Virus record (IMG/VR): IMGVR_UViG_3300022700_000179
Span: 1-64,000 of that record
DNA from: a virus
Direction: 5' to 3' (one strand)
DNA: 64,000 bases
Shown here: one piece after another, positions 13,756-42,165 of the stretch
How the letters are laid out: the number at the start of each line of letters is the position of its first letter
Position numbering within the stretch: the stretch's first letter is position 1
Made by a program: the position numbers and the translations under genes
The notes under the pieces: model-generated
Told to the model about the DNA's origin: nothing
Seen by the model: the letters and a program-made list of their open reading frames with translations, nothing else
Database searches by the model: none

Positions 13756-14126
13756 GGGCCCGAAATGGTTTCGACAGGGATGAATGAAGCTCTAGCTGCA
13801 ACCGGAGGATTCTAGGAACCTCCTCAAACTCCTAGAAAACAGAAACGCGAACGACAACAACGTTCCCATGGAGGTCGCTGAGGCGGCATAACTCCATCGT
13901 CCTGCTGGGAGCCCTGCCTATGGCATTCAGCGAGGGCGTCGTTAAAGTAGGCTAGCTTTCTGGGAATCTTGTAGCGGACGAAGAGAGCGAACACCTTTAG
14001 CTACTACGCCGATGCTAGGTCGTTACCCTACCTCGTGCAAAGGCGAAATGTCAGAAAGTGGTAACTATGGTTGTAGACGCTACAGTGGATCATTTCTGGA
14101 CCCCGGTTCGATTCCGGGCGGGTCCA
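13756..14126 (+). ncRNA. ssrA: tmRNA (transfer-messenger RNA)
   Basis: The 5' end GGGCCCGAAATGGTTTCGACAGGG is the canonical tmRNA start, given here as positions 13756-13779. The 3' tRNA-like end has CCGGTTCGATTCCGG as T-arm and CGGGTCC pairing with the 5' acceptor; discriminator A, CCA not encoded. The tag reading frame 13847-13891 encodes ANDNNVPMEVAEAA and stop. Phage tmRNA rescues stalled ribosomes and tags nascent peptides; the GGQ factor at 18757 and RtcB at 29776 fit the same theme. The tag lacks the usual LAA or VAA end. Confidence 0.95.
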
Positions 14127-14128
14127 AC

Positions 14129-14156
14129 TTCTTATAACGTTACACTTCCCTATACT
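14129..14156 (+). promoter_or_regulatory. Possible promoter after the tmRNA
   Basis: TATACT (14151-14156) with a weak TTCTTA 16 nt upstream, followed by CTGTAAACT. The octamer CTGTAAAC recurs upstream of genes at 17.37, 29.04, 35.45 (reverse) and 46.69 kb and may be a phage promoter element. Confidence 0.4.
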
Positions 14157-25802: not shown

Positions 25803-27692
25803 ATGTCTACAAAGGTATATCGTTACGGACTGCTTGCACCTACCGAAAACGCTGATGTAGTTGCAGACCAGATACGGCACGCCCATAGCTACTATAACAA
25901 GCTGGTAGAGTTAGAGCGTAGGCGCCGGGATCAGATCCGTGGTATTATTGATACTGAAACCGGTGATGTCTTGGGGGCAGCTAAGCAGGCCGACGCGGAA
26001 CGTCAGTCTGCACGTAAAGCCTTAGCGCGCGAAAATGCAGAAAAGCGAAGTCGCAAAAAAGCTGACCCGAAGCTGCAGAAAGCTCTTAAGGATGCTAGTA
26101 AAAAGAGGAAGAAGGCGCTAGCAACTCTCAAGAAAGCCCGAAGCAAAGCTTTCAAGGAACACAAGGAAACAATCCGGTCCATCAATCAACGGCACGGCAA
26201 TCGTTTGCGTGAAGCGCGCAAAAATACTCCTACTTACTGGGGTACCTATACGATTGTGGAGGATGCTCTCAAAGCTTCTGCTAACGACAAGATGCTGTGG
26301 GATCGACGAGATTGGTTTTCACCTTCAGACCCTGAGTTCAAGCGGTGGAGGGGCGAAGGCCGTCTTTCTGTACAGGTCCAAAAAAGTCCACAGGATAAAA
26401 AGCCTGGGTTGGCGTCGGAGGCAGTCTTCCAAGAAAATAACCTTGTGTGGGTTGATCCAGTTGACGAGCGGGCGTGGTGTGATCCGGTACGTGGAGTACG
26501 TCGTCGGTTCAGTCGAACCAAGTTGCACTTTCGAATTGACTCTGACGAAAATAGGAAACCTGTTTGGACGGAGTTCCCGATGATTATGCACCGGCCTCTG
26601 CCTGAGGGTGGGCGGGTAAAGAGGGTAACGATCCATAAAAAACGTATCGGGACGCGGGTAGAGTGGTCCGCGCACTTCACGGTGAATACAGACGCCGTAA
26701 TTCCAGAGAGTCGTCCTGTCAGTGGCATGGTGGCTATTGATGTAGGATGGCGCAAGCTGGATAGCGGGGCCATTCGGGTAGCTGCTTGGGACGCTTCTGA
26801 TGGTAAGTCTGGTTACCTGGAAGTTTCGCCAGAGCTAATCAGTGCTCTGCAGTACAACAGGCAGTTACGTTCTATTCGGAACAATAATTTCAACGAGATC
26901 ATTTCTCAGTTGGTAGAGCACTTCAAGCATGCGCACGTGCCCAGCTGGCTATGCGAGGAGCTGGGTAGGAAAGAGAAACTAACGCCTGAGAAAGCCCGGG
27001 CGGTTCTAGCGCAGCTTCGATCTATGGATCGACTTGCATACCTGACTAGACGTTGGGCCGAGGAGGGAGTCACCGAAAAGCACGCTTATATGTACCAGCG
27101 GTTGGAGGAGTGGCGGTACCACGATTTTCATTTGTATAGTTGGGAATCAGACCAAGCAAAGAAATCTCAGCGGCGCCGTAAAGATCTGTACCGTAATTTT
27201 GCTGCGGAGTTGTCCCGCACATACGAAACATTGGTTCTAGAGGACTTTAAATTAGACCGGTTGGTACGGCGCAACGATGTCGGTGCTGAATCTGAAAACG
27301 AGACAGCTCGCGCAAACCGACATATGGTGGCGTTGTACGAACTGCGGGATAGTTTAATCAACGCTTTCAACCGTTGCGGTGCAGTAGTTATAGTTGACCC
27401 GAGGGATAGTACTCGTACATGCCATGTTTGTGGGGTGGTTAACGATTGGGACCAGGCTGCCGAGCTTGAACACAGGTGCGTAGCATGTGGTACTATTTGG
27501 GACCAAGACGACAACGCGGCTCTAATTTTGCGGCGTCGTGGTGCGGGGTTTGGGGGTGGCGACGGGGCCGGAACCGCTCGCGGGAGTAAAAGTGGTAACG
27601 ATTATACCAGGAAGGCGCCGAGAAAGCGGCCCTCCCGGAGCTACCAGGAGCTGCACCGCCGGCGCCGAGAGTCGGCCGCTCGCAGTTGGTAG
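25803..27692 (+). CDS. cas12m-like: Cas12m-like type V CRISPR effector with intact RuvC triad
   Basis: 629 aa. N-terminal VADQIRHAHSYYNKLVELE, then a highly charged coiled coil (about 55-140), YWGTYTIVEDALKAS, GEGRLSVQVQ and a PMIMHRPLP strand region follow the layout I recall for Cas12m (former V-U1/c2c4). RuvC-I is AIDVGWRK (Asp313), RuvC-II LVLEDF (Glu480), RuvC-III DQDDNAA (Asp569), with zinc Cys 540/543 and 559/562. In the Mycolicibacterium enzyme, as I recall it, the first Asp is His, and Cas12m binds DNA without cutting; here the triad is complete, so cleavage is possible. The C terminus is an Arg/Gly-rich tail. No Cas1, Cas2 or Cas4 is nearby. Confidence 0.85.
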   Translation: MSTKVYRYGLLAPTENADVVADQIRHAHSYYNKLVELERRRRDQIRGIIDTETGDVLGAAKQADAERQSARKALARENAEKRSRKKADPKLQKALKDASKKRKKALATLKKARSKAFKEHKETIRSINQRHGNRLREARKNTPTYWGTYTIVEDALKASANDKMLWDRRDWFSPSDPEFKRWRGEGRLSVQVQKSPQDKKPGLASEAVFQENNLVWVDPVDERAWCDPVRGVRRRFSRTKLHFRIDSDENRKPVWTEFPMIMHRPLPEGGRVKRVTIHKKRIGTRVEWSAHFTVNTDAVIPESRPVSGMVAIDVGWRKLDSGAIRVAAWDASDGKSGYLEVSPELISALQYNRQLRSIRNNNFNEIISQLVEHFKHAHVPSWLCEELGRKEKLTPEKARAVLAQLRSMDRLAYLTRRWAEEGVTEKHAYMYQRLEEWRYHDFHLYSWESDQAKKSQRRRKDLYRNFAAELSRTYETLVLEDFKLDRLVRRNDVGAESENETARANRHMVALYELRDSLINAFNRCGAVVIVDPRDSTRTCHVCGVVNDWDQAAELEHRCVACGTIWDQDDNAALILRRRGAGFGGGDGAGTARGSKSGNDYTRKAPRKRPSRSYQELHRRRRESAARSW

Positions 27693-27714
27693 CACAGTTA
27701 GTCGTACTTACACT
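27686..27714 (+). promoter_or_regulatory. Promoter of the CRISPR array
   Basis: TTGGTA (27686-27691), 17-nt spacer, TACACT (27709-27714). Transcription would start near 27721, 10 nt before the first repeat. The spacer carries GTCGTACT (27701-27708), which is also found after degenerate repeat 11 downstream. Confidence 0.65.
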
Positions 27715-27730
27715 GTTTTTTGTGCCCGCT

Positions 27731-28397
27731 GTAACAACGCCTGCTCAACGGCGTAGAAGTTGAGACACGATAGCAAAACTATTTGAGCTTGTAATGGCTG
27801 GTAACAACGCCTGCTCAACGGCGTAGAAGTTGAGACACCTCTCGTCTGTTTGGGGTTTTTATCCCATACTATGTAACAACGCCTGCTCAACGGCGTATAA
27901 GTTGAGACTCTGTTCGGTCGTCGAGAGACAGGATGAAAGCGCGGTAACAATGCCTGCTCACCGGCGTAGAAGATGAGACCAGTCCATAAGCGGTTCGTCC
28001 CCCGTGTAGCGGCCGTAACAACGCCCGCTCAACGGCGTAGAAGTTGAGACCAGGTCAGCGAGCCGCTCATGCAATCCCACTGCAAGTAACAACGCCCGCT
28101 CAACGGCGTAGAAGTTGAGACTCTGTGCGTCCGATTCCGACCTGGTCGTGCTCTACACAACAACGCCCGCTCAACGGCGTATAAGTTGAGACGTATCGGA
28201 TCTGCGTGGCATAATCGATCAATAACGCCTGCTCAACGGCGTAGAAGTTGAGACTTTGTAGGTACCGATCCCCCAGATCCAAACCACATACAACAACGCC
28301 TGCTCAACGGCGTAGAAGTTGAGACTTTGCAGAGGGTCGTCGCCAAAGTGTACGCGGCCCTGCAACAACGCCTGCTCAATGGTGTATAAATTGAGAC
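27731..28397 (+). CRISPR. CRISPR array, 10 repeats of 36 nt and 9 spacers
   Basis: Repeats start at 27731, 27801, 27873, 27944, 28015, 28086, 28157, 28219, 28290 and 28362. The 3' part contains the hairpin CTCAAC-GGCGTAGAA-GTTGAG and ends GAC. Spacers are 34, 36, 35, 35, 35, 35, 26, 35 and 36 nt. Repeat 4 is degenerate (a C-A mismatch in the stem); repeat 10 has CTCAAT/ATTGAG and is the terminal type, so the array reads in the plus direction from the cas gene. The first two bases of the repeat vary (GT, AC, TC, GC). Spacer targets cannot be determined here. Confidence 0.97.
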
Positions 28398-28476
28398 GGA
28401 TCTGGTTTTGTATGTTTTTTGCGAAGTCGTACCAGTACAACGGTTTTTCAAGTTGTAACGCGAGTACGGACGGTGT

Positions 28477-28505
28477 TTGCACGTAATCATATGCTATGCT
28501 ATACT
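28477..28505 (+). promoter_or_regulatory. Promoter of the degenerate mini-array
   Basis: TTGCAC (28477-28482), exactly 17 nt, TATACT (28500-28505). The start is near 28512, inside degenerate repeat 11. It lies in a 108-nt spacer-like interval after the last array repeat. Confidence 0.75.
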
Positions 28506-28614
28506 GGATTAGTACCTGCTCAATGGGGTATAAATTGAGACGCGTCGTACTGCACAGACTCAATCTTGCTCAGCAGTTTACAAGCTGAGATGCCTCTGTA
28601 GGAGACATCTTTTG
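28506..28614 (+). ncRNA. crRNA-like small RNA with two degenerate repeats
   Basis: Between the promoter and a terminator lie repeat 11 (28506-28541, stem CTCAAT-GGGGTATAA-ATTGAG), a 14-nt spacer (28542-28555) and repeat 12 (28556-28591, stem CTCAGC-AGTTTACAA-GCTGAG). The 6-bp stem and 9-nt loop of the array repeat are kept while both strands change together, evidence of selection for structure. The RNA would be about 100 nt. It resembles regulatory crRNA-like RNAs such as CreR (known from type I systems); it could also be a tracrRNA. The role is inferred. Confidence 0.65.
28588..28613 (+). terminator. Terminator of the crRNA-like RNA
   Basis: AGATGCCTC (28588-28596) pairs with GAGACATCT (28602-28610), one C-A mismatch, loop TGTAG, followed by TTTT. 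It reuses the 3' end of degenerate repeat 12. Confidence 0.6.
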
Positions 28615-32349: not shown

Positions 32350-32363
32350 GTAGTTCTTTTTGA

Positions 32364-32437
32364 TGGGAGCGACAGGAATCGAACCTGCTCTTCTGGGGAC
32401 CGTACTCCACAGTGTGCTGCCTTTACACCACGCTCCC
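32364..32437 (-). tRNA. tRNA on the minus strand, anticodon uncertain (possibly Arg-ACG)
   Basis: GGGAGCG/CGCTCCC acceptor with A discriminator, T-arm GCAGG-TTCGATT-CCTGT and a D-like arm are clear. The anticodon arm is irregular: CTGTGG/CCCCAG with one mismatch leaves an 8-nt loop AGTACGGT, which would present ACG. CCA is not encoded. Confidence 0.65.
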
Positions 32438-32441
32438 AGGT

Positions 32442-32474
32442 GGCCCGAAGGTGTATACCCAACAACTCCGGGCC
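32442..32474 (-). other. 9-bp hairpin between minus-strand RNA genes
   Basis: On the minus strand GGCCCGGAG pairs with CTTCGGGCC (one G-U pair), loop of 15 nt containing GTATAC. It separates the tRNA from the permuted tRNA-like RNAs and may be a processing or stabilising element. No T run follows. Confidence 0.45.
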
Positions 32475-32538
32475 TGCTTTGCCGGTACATAGTAACGGTT
32501 GCCCACAAAAAGGGCTTCCTATCGCCGACGACGTTTAA

Positions 32539-32644
32539 GTTGCCGCTTCAGTTCTAACCGCCCACGCTCTATCGCTGAGCTACAGGTCCATATAGAGGAC
32601 CTGATGGGATTCAAACCCACGCCTTGGGCTATATTGTCAGCAAC
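32539..32644 (-). ncRNA. Permuted tRNA-like RNA (Y-RNA-like module 2)
   Basis: Read on the minus strand the order is T-arm (GTGGG-TTTGAAT-CCCAT), acceptor hairpin CAGGTCC-TCTATAT-GGACCTG, then D-arm GCTC-AGCGATA-GAGC: a circularly permuted tRNA. GCCCA before the T-arm pairs with TGGGC after the D-arm as an anticodon-stem equivalent, and GTTGC pairs with GCAAC further out. The tRNA-mimicking module of bacterial YrlA RNA is built this way. The conserved Ro-stem sequence of the 39.8-kb units is not evident. Confidence 0.6.
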
Positions 32645-32742
32645 ATTCGATTCGACGAAACCGGCCAATGCTCAGCTTTGGAGAATAGCTTCAACTTTAG
32701 TGGCTCGTAAACTACCGACGGCCGTATTCCAGGCGGTGCTGT

Positions 32743-32824
32743 TGAGTACGGTTGCGTATGCCATTTCGCCATCCCTACGTAAAATGTAGGGAGCAGGATT
32801 CGAACCTGCATGTCGATATGCTCA
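32743..32824 (-). ncRNA. Permuted tRNA-like RNA (Y-RNA-like module 1)
   Basis: Minus strand: T-arm GCAGG-TTCGAAT-CCTGC, acceptor hairpin TCCCTAC-ATTTTAC-GTAGGGA (7 bp perfect), then D-arm GCG-AAATGGCATA-CGC. TGAGCAT and GTACTCA form the lower stem with one mismatch. Same architecture as the neighbouring module 2. The tRNA halves are in reverse order, so an ordinary tRNA cannot form without end joining. Confidence 0.6.
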
Positions 32825-32905
32825 CATCGCCCTGATTTTGAATTTGAGTTTCAGCTTGTCTCCACTGCTAAGCTGCTTTGTCTTCTGCTACTACTCCGTT
32901 TACAG

Positions 32906-33643
32906 TTACCCAAGCAAGAAGCTGAACAGTGCATCACCGACGGATTGTTTGTCGTCAACCTCCACAGAGTTGGCCTGTTCTCGGGCGAACTTCACCGCCT
33001 TGAGCATTTTCCGTGCTCGTTGCTGTAGCTCTTTCTTCCTATCCGCTGTCACAGCGCCAGACTGTTTGATGGTCGTCCAGGTTCCCACGATTTTGTCGAC
33101 CTGAACCAATTGTGTCTGTGCTGGATGTTCCGGCGTGGCCGGGAACAATACAATCGGTTCGTGTACCTTCGATTTTTTTGTGGTATCCACCGGGGCCGAC
33201 TTGAACAGTCCCGTAGCCGCATCCTTGCTCCAGGCAAAAGCTGGATCGAGTACTGGTAAGCTGTCAATAACCGTATTTAGGTCGGTTAGTTGCTTCTCCA
33301 AGAAGAGCAGGTGCGTGGCTGGTATGCGCGTTAGTAGCGTTTTACCATCCACCACTACATCTGCGTACGCATGACAGTTTGCAGCATCCTTCGCGTACAC
33401 CGTATCCATGTATTCGGTGAGCTGCTCTGCCACTTCCTGTAGCGTGTCTTCTACACGCATCTGAACGAGATGCCGTTCGGGTGGGAAGTCCTCCCCGTCC
33501 TCATCCTTTTTGGAGTAGGTTTTGGAGAAGCCTTCAAAAAGCGCCGATTTTTGCAGGGCCTTGTATTGGTCCGTGACAAAACGCATGACTCGAGTTTTGA
33601 CACCCTTTTCTACTGCGATGATCTGATGCAATTTGGTTGTCAT
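32906..33643 (-). CDS. Conserved protein of unknown function (DUF7873-like)
   Basis: 245 aa. LHQIIAVEKGVKTR at the N terminus, YADVVVDGKTLLTRIPATHLLFLEKQLTDL in the middle and AVKFAREQANSVEV near the end match a conserved family I know from phages and diverse bacteria. No catalytic residues are obvious. It has its own consensus promoter with an inverted repeat upstream, unlike most neighbours, so it is probably expressed independently and regulated. Confidence 0.75.
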   Translation of the reverse strand: MTTKLHQIIAVEKGVKTRVMRFVTDQYKALQKSALFEGFSKTYSKKDEDGEDFPPERHLVQMRVEDTLQEVAEQLTEYMDTVYAKDAANCHAYADVVVDGKTLLTRIPATHLLFLEKQLTDLNTVIDSLPVLDPAFAWSKDAATGLFKSAPVDTTKKSKVHEPIVLFPATPEHPAQTQLVQVDKIVGTWTTIKQSGAVTADRKKELQQRARKMLKAVKFAREQANSVEVDDKQSVGDALFSFLLG

Positions 33644-33886: not shown

Positions 33887-34384
33887 TCATTGCTTTACAT
33901 TTCTTGCTGCGGTTCTGGCTACGCGTAGCCTTCGTCGTAGCTTGACCCACCAGCTGGACTCCGATTTATTTAACTCCAATTTATTTATTTGCTTTTGCAT
34001 GGTTTCAATTTGCGTGGTGTACTGTTTTCTTTTATTTAAATAACTATTTATATAATGTTTCATCATGTTCTGGGATTCCAAGAAGTGCATGAAGCGGATG
34101 AGTGGTAGTTCACTTAGGTATTGTCCCCGTATAGACTTATGGCCAGGGACAACGCCCAGGGCCATCAGTTGTCCCGCGAATCTACCGTGGGACGCCTCCA
34201 CTCTGTGAATGGGCACGCCTTTGGCTTCAAGCTTGTCTGCCAGCATACTAAGCTGACTCTCAGACTCTACGCCAAGCGCGACGGCATGTGTACCGGATTT
34301 AATGTTGCCATTTGATGATTCCCCAGCAGCGTGGATTAGTTGTGCTGAGGCTACACCAACCGTAGATCTGTACGGGTGATGCAA
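33887..34384 (-). CDS. Peptidyl-tRNA hydrolase 2-like protein
   Basis: 165 aa. ASAQLIHAAGES, THAVALGVESESQLSMLADKL and RFAGQLMALGVVPGHK follow the order of conserved segments in PTH2-like phage and bacterial proteins, whose family removes peptides from tRNA. The first beta-strand with the usual Lys is missing, so activity is uncertain. The C-terminal 60 residues are a basic coiled coil. It fits the translation-rescue set of this phage. Confidence 0.5.
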   Translation of the reverse strand: MHHPYRSTVGVASAQLIHAAGESSNGNIKSGTHAVALGVESESQLSMLADKLEAKGVPIHRVEASHGRFAGQLMALGVVPGHKSIRGQYLSELPLIRFMHFLESQNMMKHYINSYLNKRKQYTTQIETMQKQINKLELNKSESSWWVKLRRRLRVARTAARNVKQ

Positions 34385-39830: not shown

Positions 39831-39897
39831 AATCGGGTGATGCAGGCATCGGATACTTCGAATGGGTCAAGACTGATGTCGTCCATTTCCCCGAGGT
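39831..39897 (+). ncRNA. Y-RNA-like RNA A
   Basis: It carries all three conserved blocks, GGGTGATGC, TACTTCG and TTTCCCCGA. The helix GGCATC/GATGTC connects to the outer TCGGG/CCCGA stem. It is the shortest unit, with no tRNA-like insert. It lies upstream of Ro60 together with three similar units. Confidence 0.75.
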
Positions 39898-39940
39898 TAA
39901 AATCATGTCTACCGTCCTGGTCCAGCACTGGTAGACTTTA

Positions 39941-40081
39941 GGTCCGGGTGATGCAGAAACGGCCTACTTCGCAATTGGTCGGTTGTCGCGGGTTCGATCC
40001 CCGCCTCCTTGGGTTATCAATCCTAGGGAGTAGCTCAGAGGACAGAGCACCGGGTAGCTGTTTTGATTGTTTCCCCGAACC
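39941..40081 (+). ncRNA. Y-RNA-like RNA B with permuted tRNA-like module
   Basis: The outer stem GGTCCGGG/CCCCGAACC (one mismatch), GGGTGATGC, TACTTCG and TTTCCCCGA blocks are present. The apical part is T-arm GCGGG-TTCGATC-CCCGC, a 9-bp acceptor hairpin closed by TTATCAAT, then D-arm GCTC-AGAGGACA-GAGC. This T-acceptor-D order is the tRNA mimic known from bacterial YrlA RNAs. Helix AAACGGC/GCTGTTT joins both parts. Confidence 0.8.
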
Positions 40082-40084
40082 TTT

Positions 40085-40213
40085 CCGGGTGATGCAGAGA
40101 TAAGTTACTTCGATATTTGGCATATTGAGTTTAGGTTCGATTCCTAACCATTCTACGCAAAGTAGGTGGGCCCTGGGCGGGCGCTGTTGACTTATCTTGA
40201 CTATTTCCCCGAT
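40085..40213 (+). ncRNA. Y-RNA-like RNA C with permuted tRNA-like module
   Basis: CCGGG TGATGC, TACTTCG and TTTCCCCGA blocks; helix GATAAGT/ACTTATC (7 bp perfect). The module has T-arm TTAGG-TTCGATT-CCTAA, an acceptor hairpin around GCAAA and a D-like arm GCCC…GGGC. It starts 3 nt after unit B, so these are tandem genes or one processed transcript. Confidence 0.78.
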
Positions 40214-40223
40214 TTTTACTGGT

Positions 40224-40307
40224 ATCTGGGTGATGCTGCCAAAAGTTACTTCGCATCTGATTTGTATCAGCTCAGCTAAAAGACTTTTGGCGATTATTTC
40301 CCCGAGT
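40224..40307 (+). ncRNA. Y-RNA-like RNA D
   Basis: GGGTGATGC, TACTTCG and TTTCCCCGA blocks with a perfect 9-bp helix GCCAAAAGT/ACTTTTGGC. The apical part is short and contains CAGCTCAGC, a remnant of a D-arm-like sequence. It ends 65 nt before the Ro60 start. Confidence 0.75.
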
Positions 40308-40371
40308 TTATCGCGTCCTGCGAATCCGTGCTACGACTGTGTAGTACACAAACAACATTAGAGGTGACAAA

Positions 40372-42165
40372 ATGCGTGTAGGGACTGGAAAGAGGAGCGT
40401 GACTGACCGCGCCGTGCGCGAAGCCTTGTCTCGGGCTACTGAACAGCGGTATGTAGGTGGACCGGCGTTTGATCTAGCTGATCCGGTCCAGCGTCTTATA
40501 TTTACTATCGGGTCTGGATTTTTTGGTGAGGATAAGTTTTACGACAGTCTACAGCCAACGGACGTGCAGGGTCACCGAACCGCAAAGGCGAGTTTGTCTA
40601 CCTATAAAGGTGAAACCTTAGTTCACCCTGAGAATATAAAGGATCGGTTTGGGTTTAACGAGTCTGCGCGGGATCTAGTTCGGACTATGCGTGAGATTGC
40701 TGAAGAAAAGAACTTCGAGGATTTACTAATACTAGCCAGGTGGGCGCGTGAGGACTTGAATCTTAGGCAGACGCCTATCATGGCTCTGGTTATATCTGCA
40801 CGGGCAGAGTTTGAACTGGGTCGTGGTAGTGGGTTGATTCGTAAGTATACGCCGTTGATTCTTCGTCGGGCAGACGAACCGAAACGGGCTTTTGCGGCCT
40901 ACCGTCACCTTTTCATGGAGGGGGCAGACGGTCGACGTAAAGGATCATTCCCGAAGCAATTTGCGCGTGGTTTGATTGAGTCTCTACAGCAGTTTAACGA
41001 GTATCAGATCTTGAAATATGACTCATCACGTGAGGCGCCCACTTTCAAGGATTTGGCTATTTTTCTATCACGGTACGAAGGTCGTGGAAAAGGACGCCCT
41101 CGACGATCTAATATGCGTCCATTCTCGCACGCCATGGCAAAATATTTGATTGATGGTGAGATAAACGCGAAAGCACTTCCCAAAGTGGCTGCTAGGGCGA
41201 AGCTTTTCAAGTTGAAGACGTGGTGCCCTACTGCCAAAAAACTGGCATTAGAGGGTGATGTTACTTGGGAAAATTTGATAAGCCACTTTGGTTCTACAAA
41301 GGCAACATGGGGATGGTTGATTCAAAATAGAAAATTGCCTTACATGGCAATGTTACGTAACTTGCGGAACTTAGAAAAAGTGGGCCTGTCTGATAGTGAT
41401 TGGGAGCGTGTTTACTCTTACCTTACTTCTGATGTAAATCATAGGCAGATGCCATTTCGGTTTCTGTCTGCTCGGAAAGAGGTGAGCCACCAAACTGCAC
41501 GGTCAGCTATAGATATAGCTCTGGATAAGTCGGTTCAGAACATTCCGGATTTGGGCGGTAAGACTTTTATCATGGTGGATGCCTCAGGTTCGATGGACGC
41601 GCTTGTTTCAAAACGTTCCACCATAAGCTGCAAAGAAGTTGGTATGGCGATGGCGGCGGTCTTGGCTAAGCGTGTTGGTCGTAGGGCTCGGCTCGGTGTG
41701 TTTGGGACTCGTTTCCAGCTCGTCAGCTTTTCTGAAGCGAATTCTGTCATGGCAATCGTCAACCAGCTTAAGGATGCAGGAATCCAGGTCGGCCATGCTA
41801 CTCACGCACATTTAGGCCTTGTGTGGGCGTTGGGGAAGTATACCGGCTTCAACGCGGAGGAATTTGATCGAGTTATCATCGTAAGTGACATGAACTGCTA
41901 TTCAGAGAACTTTTTACGGAACGGTACTGATTTGGTAAGCCTTTTGGCAGAATATCGTCATACGGTCAATCCGGATGTGTTTTTCTACAGCTTGAACATT
42001 TCTGGAGGTAACCAATCCCAGATGGATCCAAAAAACGACAGAACACTTTTGATGAGCGGATGGTCCGAGAAGGTCTTCCATCTGATCGCACAGTTCGAGA
42101 ATCCGGGCACATTGCCCACAATCGACGCGTTACGTGATAGGTTTAGCTATTCTACAGCTAGCTAA
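40372..42165 (+). CDS. Ro60/Rsr homologue (TROVE plus vWA domains)
   Basis: 597 aa with GAGGTGAC upstream. Residues about 30-380 show TROVE-type HEAT repeats (DLVRTMREIAEEKNFEDLLILARWAREDLNLRQTPIMAL as positions 100-138, then YEGRGKGRP and WENLISHFGS). The vWA domain has MIDAS DASGS (Asp403, Ser405, Ser407) and VIIVSDMN. Ro60 forms a ring that holds misfolded RNA ends and binds Y RNA on its surface. Four Y-RNA-like genes lie directly upstream on the same strand, as in bacterial rsr loci. Confidence 0.9.
   Translation: MRVGTGKRSVTDRAVREALSRATEQRYVGGPAFDLADPVQRLIFTIGSGFFGEDKFYDSLQPTDVQGHRTAKASLSTYKGETLVHPENIKDRFGFNESARDLVRTMREIAEEKNFEDLLILARWAREDLNLRQTPIMALVISARAEFELGRGSGLIRKYTPLILRRADEPKRAFAAYRHLFMEGADGRRKGSFPKQFARGLIESLQQFNEYQILKYDSSREAPTFKDLAIFLSRYEGRGKGRPRRSNMRPFSHAMAKYLIDGEINAKALPKVAARAKLFKLKTWCPTAKKLALEGDVTWENLISHFGSTKATWGWLIQNRKLPYMAMLRNLRNLEKVGLSDSDWERVYSYLTSDVNHRQMPFRFLSARKEVSHQTARSAIDIALDKSVQNIPDLGGKTFIMVDASGSMDALVSKRSTISCKEVGMAMAAVLAKRVGRRARLGVFGTRFQLVSFSEANSVMAIVNQLKDAGIQVGHATHAHLGLVWALGKYTGFNAEEFDRVIIVSDMNCYSENFLRNGTDLVSLLAEYRHTVNPDVFFYSLNISGGNQSQMDPKNDRTLLMSGWSEKVFHLIAQFENPGTLPTIDALRDRFSYSTAS

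What the first reader, a model, noticed from the sequence alone, without database searches (positions are those of the whole stretch)
32539..32824. Two more permuted tRNA-like RNAs on the opposite strand, far from Ro60
Both have T-arm, a 7-bp acceptor hairpin and D-arm in reverse order, and complementary sequences where the anticodon stem would close. They lack the GGGTGATGC and TTTCCCCGA blocks of the 39.8-kb units. They could be Y RNAs of another class, true permuted tRNA genes needing end joining (RtcB is encoded 2 kb away) or tRNA decoys.
Basis: partly seen in the sequence, partly recalled or inferred. Interest (0 to 1): 0.72.

Follow-up and report, generated by a model that had tools for sequence, protein, structure and literature searches.

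The report
Twin-tRNA-mimic RNA with its own protein
The two odd 'inside-out tRNAs' are parts of one undescribed RNA that folds into two tRNA look-alikes and almost always sits directly behind the same uncharacterised protein gene, in many phages and in some bacterial chromosomes, which suggests an unrecognised RNA-protein machine.

Summary
The two permuted tRNA-like units are real, but they are domains of one RNA of about 430 nt on the minus strand, directly 3' of a DUF7873 gene (32906-33643). The same arrangement occurs in 77 of 80 DUF7873 loci, including Gordonia, Arthrobacter, Klebsiella, Rhizobium and Pseudanabaena phages, and in bacterial chromosomes (Lentzea, Planotetraspora, Acidobacteria, Planctomycetes). 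Conversely, an RNA-only pattern scan found DUF7873 upstream at 41 of 42 new loci. Covariation supports the permuted acceptor, T and D stems, an outer helix, and tertiary pairs 15-48 and 19-56, so at least the second unit folds as a tRNA 'L'. A 3' hairpin with a GGNTA loop is also conserved. NCCA is encoded at half of the acceptor ends and tracks the CCA status of tRNA genes on the same contig, suggesting tRNA-type end maturation. Ro60 occurs in 7 of 46 and RtcB in 4 of 46 of these viral contigs, so neither is required. No Rfam family matches (YrlA 34 bits, cut-off 69), and the papers searched hold no description. Best reading: an RNP of DUF7873 plus a twin tRNA-mimic RNA, analogous to Ro60-YrlA but not a member. 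Its biochemical role is unknown; no expression data were available.

The parts
32906..33643 (-). DUF7873 (PF25283) protein, 245 aa, constant partner gene
   Evidence: Pfam E 4e-94; next to the RNA in 77/80 DUF7873 loci and in 41/42 new loci found by an RNA-only pattern
32439..32880 (-). Whole noncoding RNA, approximate extent; the 5' end is not mapped
   Evidence: Conserved blocks A-TLS1-B-TLS2-C-3' hairpin across 44 non-redundant loci; ends are inferred
32833..32858 (-). Core segment A: four 6-nt repeats ARNYTN (AAGCTG AAACTC AAATTC AAAATC A)
   Evidence: Column conservation in 44 loci
32754..32809 (-). TLS1: permuted, Leu-like tRNA domain (T-arm 32809-32793, acceptor 3' 32792-32786, loop 32785-32779, acceptor 5' 32778-32772, D-arm 32769-32754)
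   Evidence: covarying stems; 36.8 bits with model R1
32722..32751 (-). Anticodon-arm-like hairpin CCGTA..TACGG of TLS1 with a 20-nt loop (7-8 nt in the nearest relatives)
   Evidence: fold; sequences
32671..32697 (-). Core segment B: ARNYTN repeats and the CTCC spacer before GAGCATTG
   Evidence: conservation
32638..32651 (-). Conserved ATCRA (32651-32647) and the 5' strand of outer helix H4 (GTTGCTG 32644-32638)
   Evidence: H4 paired 87% against 44% in shuffles, 0/2000
32566..32620 (-). TLS2: permuted tRNA domain (T-arm 32620-32604, acceptor 3' 32603-32597, loop 32596-32590, acceptor 5' 32589-32583, D-arm 32580-32566); A19-U56 replaces G19-C56
   Evidence: Covariation incl. tertiary pairs 15-48 and 19-56; 105 bits with R1 (the window is one of the 23 sequences the model was built from)
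32532..32545 (-). 3' strand of H4 (CGGCAAC 32545-32539) and TTAAACG (32538-32532), invariant apart from C/T at the sixth base
   Evidence: TTAAA..G in 44/44 loci, though TTAAA(C/T)G was part of the selection of these loci
32442..32474 (-). 3' hairpin GGCCCGGAGTTGT[TGGGTAT]ACACCTTCGGGCC, followed by ACC
   Evidence: GGNTA-loop hairpin in 33/44 loci, modal 13 bp, NCCA next in 13/33

Best explanation
One structured RNA carries two circularly permuted, L-shaped tRNA-like domains on a shared core, plus a tRNA-minihelix-like 3' hairpin. Together with the protein encoded just upstream (DUF7873) it most likely forms a ribonucleoprotein. Shown by comparative evidence: the fold, the tight two-way gene linkage, and independence from Ro60 and RtcB. 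Inferred: DUF7873 binds the conserved ARNYTN repeats and core; the acceptor loops are cut by the tRNA end-processing machinery (RNase P, 3' processing, CCA), as in two-piece permuted tmRNA, leaving a multi-piece RNA with tRNA-like CCA ends. The tRNA mimics would then dock or compete for a tRNA-handling partner (for example an RNase, aminoacyl-tRNA synthetase, EF-Tu or the ribosome), as YrlA's mimic docks PNPase. Which partner is unknown.
For: 130 permuted units in 1 kb behind DUF7873 in 80 loci against 0.1 in shuffles. An RNA-only pattern leads back to DUF7873 in 41/42 loci, in phages and bacteria. Structure: 91% of cells paired, covariation 0.758 against 0.243 in shuffles; helix H4. Tertiary pair 15-48 in TLS2 is G-C in 24 and A-T in 30 of 55 (one G-G), and U56 always occurs with A19. 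NCCA is encoded in 28/56 of each domain; CCA in the domains tracks CCA in the same contig's tRNA genes (19/22 against 15/34, p 0.002; the window has 0/13 tRNAs with CCA and none in either domain). A whole tRNA-like gene sits inside one acceptor loop (L009). In four bacterial loci whose flanking ORFs were searched against Pfam no common neighbour other than DUF7873 appeared.
Against: No expression, processing or binding data. DUF7873 has no informative fold match, so RNA binding is inferred from linkage alone. TLS1 closure is weakly supported (16.3 against 15.2, sd 0.44), and TLS1's 15-48 pair does not vary. The ARNYTN repeats show no covariation. NCCA could be inherited from ancestral tRNAs; loops without CCA are common, and the CCA correlation is significant for TLS2 but not for TLS1 alone. 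The 3' hairpin could be a separate element.
Confidence: 0.7

Rival explanations
1. Ro60-bound Y RNAs (YrlA) of a divergent class.
For: Same T-arm, acceptor, D-arm order inside an outer stem; Rfam YrlA aligns end to end at 34.0 bits; the window encodes Ro60.
Against: Far under the gathering score of 69. Ro60 in only 7/46 contigs, none in the 122,563-bp record whose length equals that of isolate GodonK. Two tRNA domains instead of one. Ro60 in the window has its own adjacent units, which model R1 matches only partially.
Confidence: 0.05
2. True permuted tRNA genes whose halves are joined by RtcB to make decoding tRNAs.
For: Tertiary contacts and CCA ends are kept; RtcB lies 2 kb away in the window; the nearest relatives keep Leu-like anticodon loops in TLS1.
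Against: RtcB in 4/46 contigs. Anticodon-like loops have 7-8 or 20 nt and no conserved triplet; TLS2 has no anticodon arm, and its stem continues into a covarying helix. Conserved core blocks are unexplained. Phages carrying it often have many ordinary tRNAs.
Confidence: 0.04
3. A decoy or sponge for host tRNA-targeting toxins or tRNA enzymes, with DUF7873 as stabiliser.
For: Faithful elbow and acceptor mimicry, loss of the anticodon, present in tRNA-rich phages.
Against: Also a single-copy chromosomal locus in bacteria, e.g. 15/24 genomes of the genus of G052 (Lentzea); a dedicated protein and an elaborate conserved core exceed what a decoy needs. No defence-library match.
Confidence: 0.15
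4. A cis-acting 3' UTR element of the DUF7873 mRNA (autoregulation or stability) rather than a separate RNA.
For: Same strand and short distance in the loci measured.
Against: Size, double tRNA mimicry and encoded CCA ends are excessive for a 3' UTR element; a 3' hairpin with CCA suggests its own 3' end.
Confidence: 0.12

Closest known systems
YrlA / Ro60 (Rsr) bacterial Y RNP, RF02553 (PMC8394870)
   Same: Permuted tRNA-like module (T, acceptor, D) inside an outer stem; encoded beside one protein; patchy in bacteria and phages (the last from general knowledge).
   Different: Two tRNA domains per RNA, a different protein (DUF7873), different core motifs, about 430 nt against 90-150, encoded CCA ends, 3' GGNTA hairpin; scores at most half of Rfam's cut-off.
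Two-piece (circularly permuted) tmRNA (Keiler 2000, cited in PMC10085705)
   Same: Gene order 3' acceptor strand, CCA, loop, 5' acceptor strand, with the loop expected to be removed by tRNA-type processing.
   Different: Two such junctions; the one 3-70 pair read off by eye (window TLS2, A3-U70) is not the G3-U70 of alanine; no tag ORF recognised; no SmpB-like partner identified.
Circularly permuted tRNA genes of algae and archaea (Soma 2014, cited in PMC10085705)
   Same: 3' half precedes 5' half.
   Different: No joined anticodon arm, RtcB mostly absent from the contigs, conserved extra core RNA; no splice motif was recognised (not searched systematically).

Membership tests
YrlA (Ro60 Y RNA) | Score at or above the Rfam gathering threshold (69 bits) | tested here: not met
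   34.0 bits in window, 27.8 in L005, 26.2 and 22.4 in Lentzea L145
YrlA (Ro60 Y RNA) | Ro60/TROVE protein encoded with it | tested here: not met
   7 of 46 contigs have PF05731; window Ro60 is 7.5 kb away with its own units. Contigs may be fragments.
YrlA (Ro60 Y RNA) | Permuted T-acceptor-D tRNA-like module | tested here: met
YrlA (Ro60 Y RNA) | Basal stem binds Ro60 | not testable with these tools
   Needs binding data
Permuted tRNA gene | Joined halves give a 5-bp anticodon stem and 7-nt loop with a constant anticodon | tested here: not met
   No conserved triplet; TLS2 stem continues into helix H4; TLS1 loops of 7-8 or 20 nt in the window and its nearest relatives
Permuted tRNA gene | Joining enzyme (RtcB) encoded or splice motif present | tested here: inconclusive
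   PF01139 in 4 of 46 viral contigs, so no phage RtcB in most; host RtcB and a splice motif were not examined
Two-piece tmRNA | Acceptor loop removed, CCA 3' end | tested here: inconclusive
   NCCA encoded in 28/56 of each domain and tracks tRNA CCA status; cleavage not measured
Two-piece tmRNA | Alanine identity (G3-U70) and tag ORF | tested here: inconclusive
   Window TLS2 has A3-U70 by eye; G3-U70 was not tabulated across loci and a tag ORF was only looked for by eye; only the separate genuine tmRNA at 13756-14129 reaches the tmRNA threshold in the window
DUF7873-linked twin-TLS RNA (defined here) | DUF7873 upstream, two permuted TLS, TTAAACG after TLS2 | tested here: met
   Window; model R1 built from 23 loci finds 33 of 35 other loci obtained through DUF7873 at 40 bits or more

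The most novel reading that the evidence does not exclude
An unrecognised ribonucleoprotein: tRNA-end enzymes cut the RNA into three pieces, each ending in a tRNA-like CCA acceptor (two full tRNA elbows and one minihelix), held together by DUF7873; the ends may be aminoacylated or engage the translation or RNA-decay machinery. It is shared by phages and by bacteria of at least three phyla.
Probability: 0.35. Interest if true: 0.95.

Novelty: categorically new. Interest (0 to 1): 0.86.

Why it matters
A large, structured RNA with two permuted tRNA mimics and a constant protein partner appears to be undescribed. It is unannotated in the isolate phage records inspected (in Klebsiella phage FBKp24 part of it is labelled 'tRNA-Sup-TTA') and is present in cultivated bacteria. 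It gives DUF7873 a testable role, offers a second case besides YrlA where a permuted tRNA fold is kept with its tertiary contacts, and asks what a cell or phage gains from a two-headed tRNA mimic.

Tried and rejected
Group I/II intron (permuted intron-exon) and other known ribozymes: no convincing Rfam match other than tRNA/tmRNA/YrlA-like ones near the units. Direct DNA similarity in phages: only short tRNA pieces. RtcB as partner: homologs are widespread in phages but rarely occur with this RNA. Watson-Crick helices between the ARNYTN repeats of A, B and C: not supported except one pair, A43:B97. Reading the repeats as Lys/Arg-Leu codons was considered; the restriction to ARN/YTN codons and the lack of starts seen by eye argued against it, but no formal coding test was run. 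Fold search of DUF7873: pLDDT 93.5, but no Foldseek match at E <= 0.001 in PDB or BFVD; best VIA hit 3kdq, Z 9.1, rmsd 7.8, 147 residues, function unknown. PHROGs, NCBIfam and PADLOC: nothing for DUF7873. A genome contigs protein scan could not use the diverged alignment, so a DNA pattern was used. Papers: none on DUF7873; open-access subset only, no bioRxiv collection held.

Full report
What was claimed.

Checking it. The window is part of a 105,713-bp IMG/VR virus record. Both units are exactly as described: T-arm, a 7-bp acceptor formed as a hairpin, then D-arm. ARAGORN and Rfam see neither as a tRNA. A scanner for T-arm, complementary acceptor strands and D-arm recovers both units; the only other well-formed high-scoring hit in the window is the Ro60-linked unit at 39988.

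The first step away from the claim. The gene just upstream on the same strand (32906-33643) is DUF7873 (PF25283). Relatives found with it carry, right behind the gene, two permuted tRNA units with similar surrounding blocks: an A block, a B block between the units, and a C block (TTAAACG...) after the second. A pattern made from block C alone returned nine contigs, eight of which carry DUF7873. So the units belong to one RNA linked to DUF7873.

How general it is. DUF7873 homologs occur in isolate phages of Gordonia, Arthrobacter, Pseudanabaena, Rhizobium, Klebsiella, Vibrio and others, and those inspected mostly have an unannotated gap with the same RNA behind the gene. An alignment of 16 proteins found 165 viral relatives, of which 80 were kept. 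Over 80 distinct loci including the window and the isolates, 77 have at least one and 52 at least two permuted units within 1 kb of the DUF7873 stop on the sense strand; elsewhere in 495 kb there are 23 sense and 1 antisense. Recounted, 130 units are seen against 0.1 in dinucleotide shuffles, with 51 loci having two (the small difference comes from the region cut). A second, DUF7873-independent pattern (D-arm of unit 2 plus TTAAACGYCG) hit 16 viral and 29 bacterial-genome stretches; 41 of the 42 new loci have DUF7873 upstream on the same strand, its match ending 251-446 nt before the pattern, and the 42nd comes from the same contig as L029, which has the gene. Bacterial carriers include many Lentzea and Planotetraspora species, other actinomycetes, Acidobacteria and Planctomycetes. 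In sampled genomes, 15 of 24 of one genus (Lentzea, G052), 6 of 246 of that phylum and 2 of 119 of a second phylum have DUF7873; these samples include the centre genomes themselves. All 15 positive genus members have one copy. The flanking ORFs searched in four bacterial loci are ordinary and differ between loci. In a protein tree the bacterial copies group by taxon and lie among viral branches.

Structure. In 44 non-redundant loci the strongest covarying pairs are the T stems, the permuted acceptor stems, the D stems, and an outer helix H4 joining block B to block C around unit 2. H4 is 87% paired against 44% when partners are shuffled, 0 of 2000. On a separately made alignment of 23 of these loci, 91% of cells pair, with a covariation score of 0.758 against 0.243 (sd 0.019) in shuffles and 0.13-0.19 in slid controls. 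Tertiary contacts covary too: positions 15-48 of unit 2 are G-C in 24 and A-T in 30 of 55 (one G-G), and the three sequences with U56 (the window among them) all have A19 instead of G19. The scanner allowed GA at 18-19, so the last observation is a correlation within accepted hits. Unit 1 has A15-U48 in 54 of 55 and therefore no variation to test. Closure of unit 1 is weaker: best A:B helix score 16.3 against 15.2 (sd 0.44) when partners are swapped. In the window and its near relatives unit 1 keeps an anticodon-like hairpin, so its opening lies at the variable arm, whereas unit 2 opens at the anticodon stem (read from the sequences).

Other conserved parts. TTAAA(C/T)G follows unit 2 in all 44 loci; note that loci entered this set by having TTAAA(C/T)G there, so 46 of 56 is the unbiased figure. 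ATC(R)A precedes H4. Segments A, B and C carry six-base repeats A-R-N-Y-T-N: four in A, two plus one in B, one in C. They do not covary as helices except one position, A43:B97. A 3' hairpin with a GGNTA loop is found in 33 of 44 loci, modal 13 bp with a 7-nt loop, followed at once by NCCA in 13 of 33. In the window it is 32474-32442.

Ends. NCCA follows the acceptor strand in 28 of 56 for each unit; the base before it is A in 47/56 for unit 1 and T in 37/56 for unit 2. In contigs whose ordinary tRNA genes encode CCA, 19 of 22 unit ends have it, against 15 of 34 where tRNAs lack it (Fisher p = 0.002 combined, 0.002 for unit 2 alone, 0.25 for unit 1 alone; loci are not independent). None of the window's 13 tRNAs encode CCA, nor do its two units. 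Acceptor loops range from 5 to 106 nt and in L009 contain a tRNA-like gene. I infer that these ends are matured like tRNA ends and the loop removed, as in two-piece tmRNA. Cleavage itself was not shown.

The protein. AlphaFold2 gives a confident model (pLDDT 93.5, pTM 0.69) with no Foldseek match at E 0.001 or better; the best second-look match, 3kdq (Z 9.1), is of unknown function. RNA binding is inferred from linkage only.

Comparison with known systems. YrlA shares the permuted module and scores 34.0 bits on unit 2, but Rfam's cut-off is 69. Of 46 viral contigs with the system only 7 have Ro60 (6 over the cut-off) and 4 have RtcB; the 122,563-bp record whose length equals isolate GodonK's has neither. 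Contigs may be fragments, so absence in one contig is weak evidence, but absence in most is not. Model R1, built on the unit 2 domain, scores the window's unit 2 at 105 bits (a training sequence), unit 1 at 36.8 and a Ro60-linked unit at 31.8 over part of the model; it finds 62 of 64 loci not used in training at 40 bits or more, including 33 of the 35 that were obtained through DUF7873 rather than by RNA pattern.

Conclusion. The family and its linkage to DUF7873 are well supported; RNP formation, end processing and function are inferences that need experiments. The literature check covers the open-access papers that could be searched, without the bioRxiv collection.

Noticed in passing
39832-40312 and 40372-42165, + strand: Four repeated units with GGGTGATGC and TTTCCCCGA blocks beside a Ro60 gene; one matches YrlA at 35.7 bits. 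A likely divergent Ro60-Y RNA locus in the same phage.
   Followed up: partly
25803-28542: A 629-aa protein with a Cas12f1-like TNB domain followed by a CRISPR-like array of about 37-nt repeats.
   Followed up: no
32362-32438, - strand: A tRNA with an undetermined, odd anticodon loop directly after the 3' hairpin of the RNA.
   Followed up: no
L009 and L011, acceptor loop of unit 1: A complete tRNA-like gene sits inside the acceptor loop of the permuted unit.
   Followed up: partly
L019 5012-5091 (Klebsiella phage FBKp24): GenBank 'tRNA-Sup-TTA' is a misread piece of this RNA.
   Followed up: yes
33887-34384, - strand: PTH2-like (peptidyl-tRNA hydrolase) protein just upstream of DUF7873 in the window, slightly under Pfam's cut-off.
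   Followed up: no
32833-32858, 32671-32697, 32548-32555, - strand: ARNYTN six-base repeats in the RNA core without covariation; ligand unknown.
   Followed up: partly
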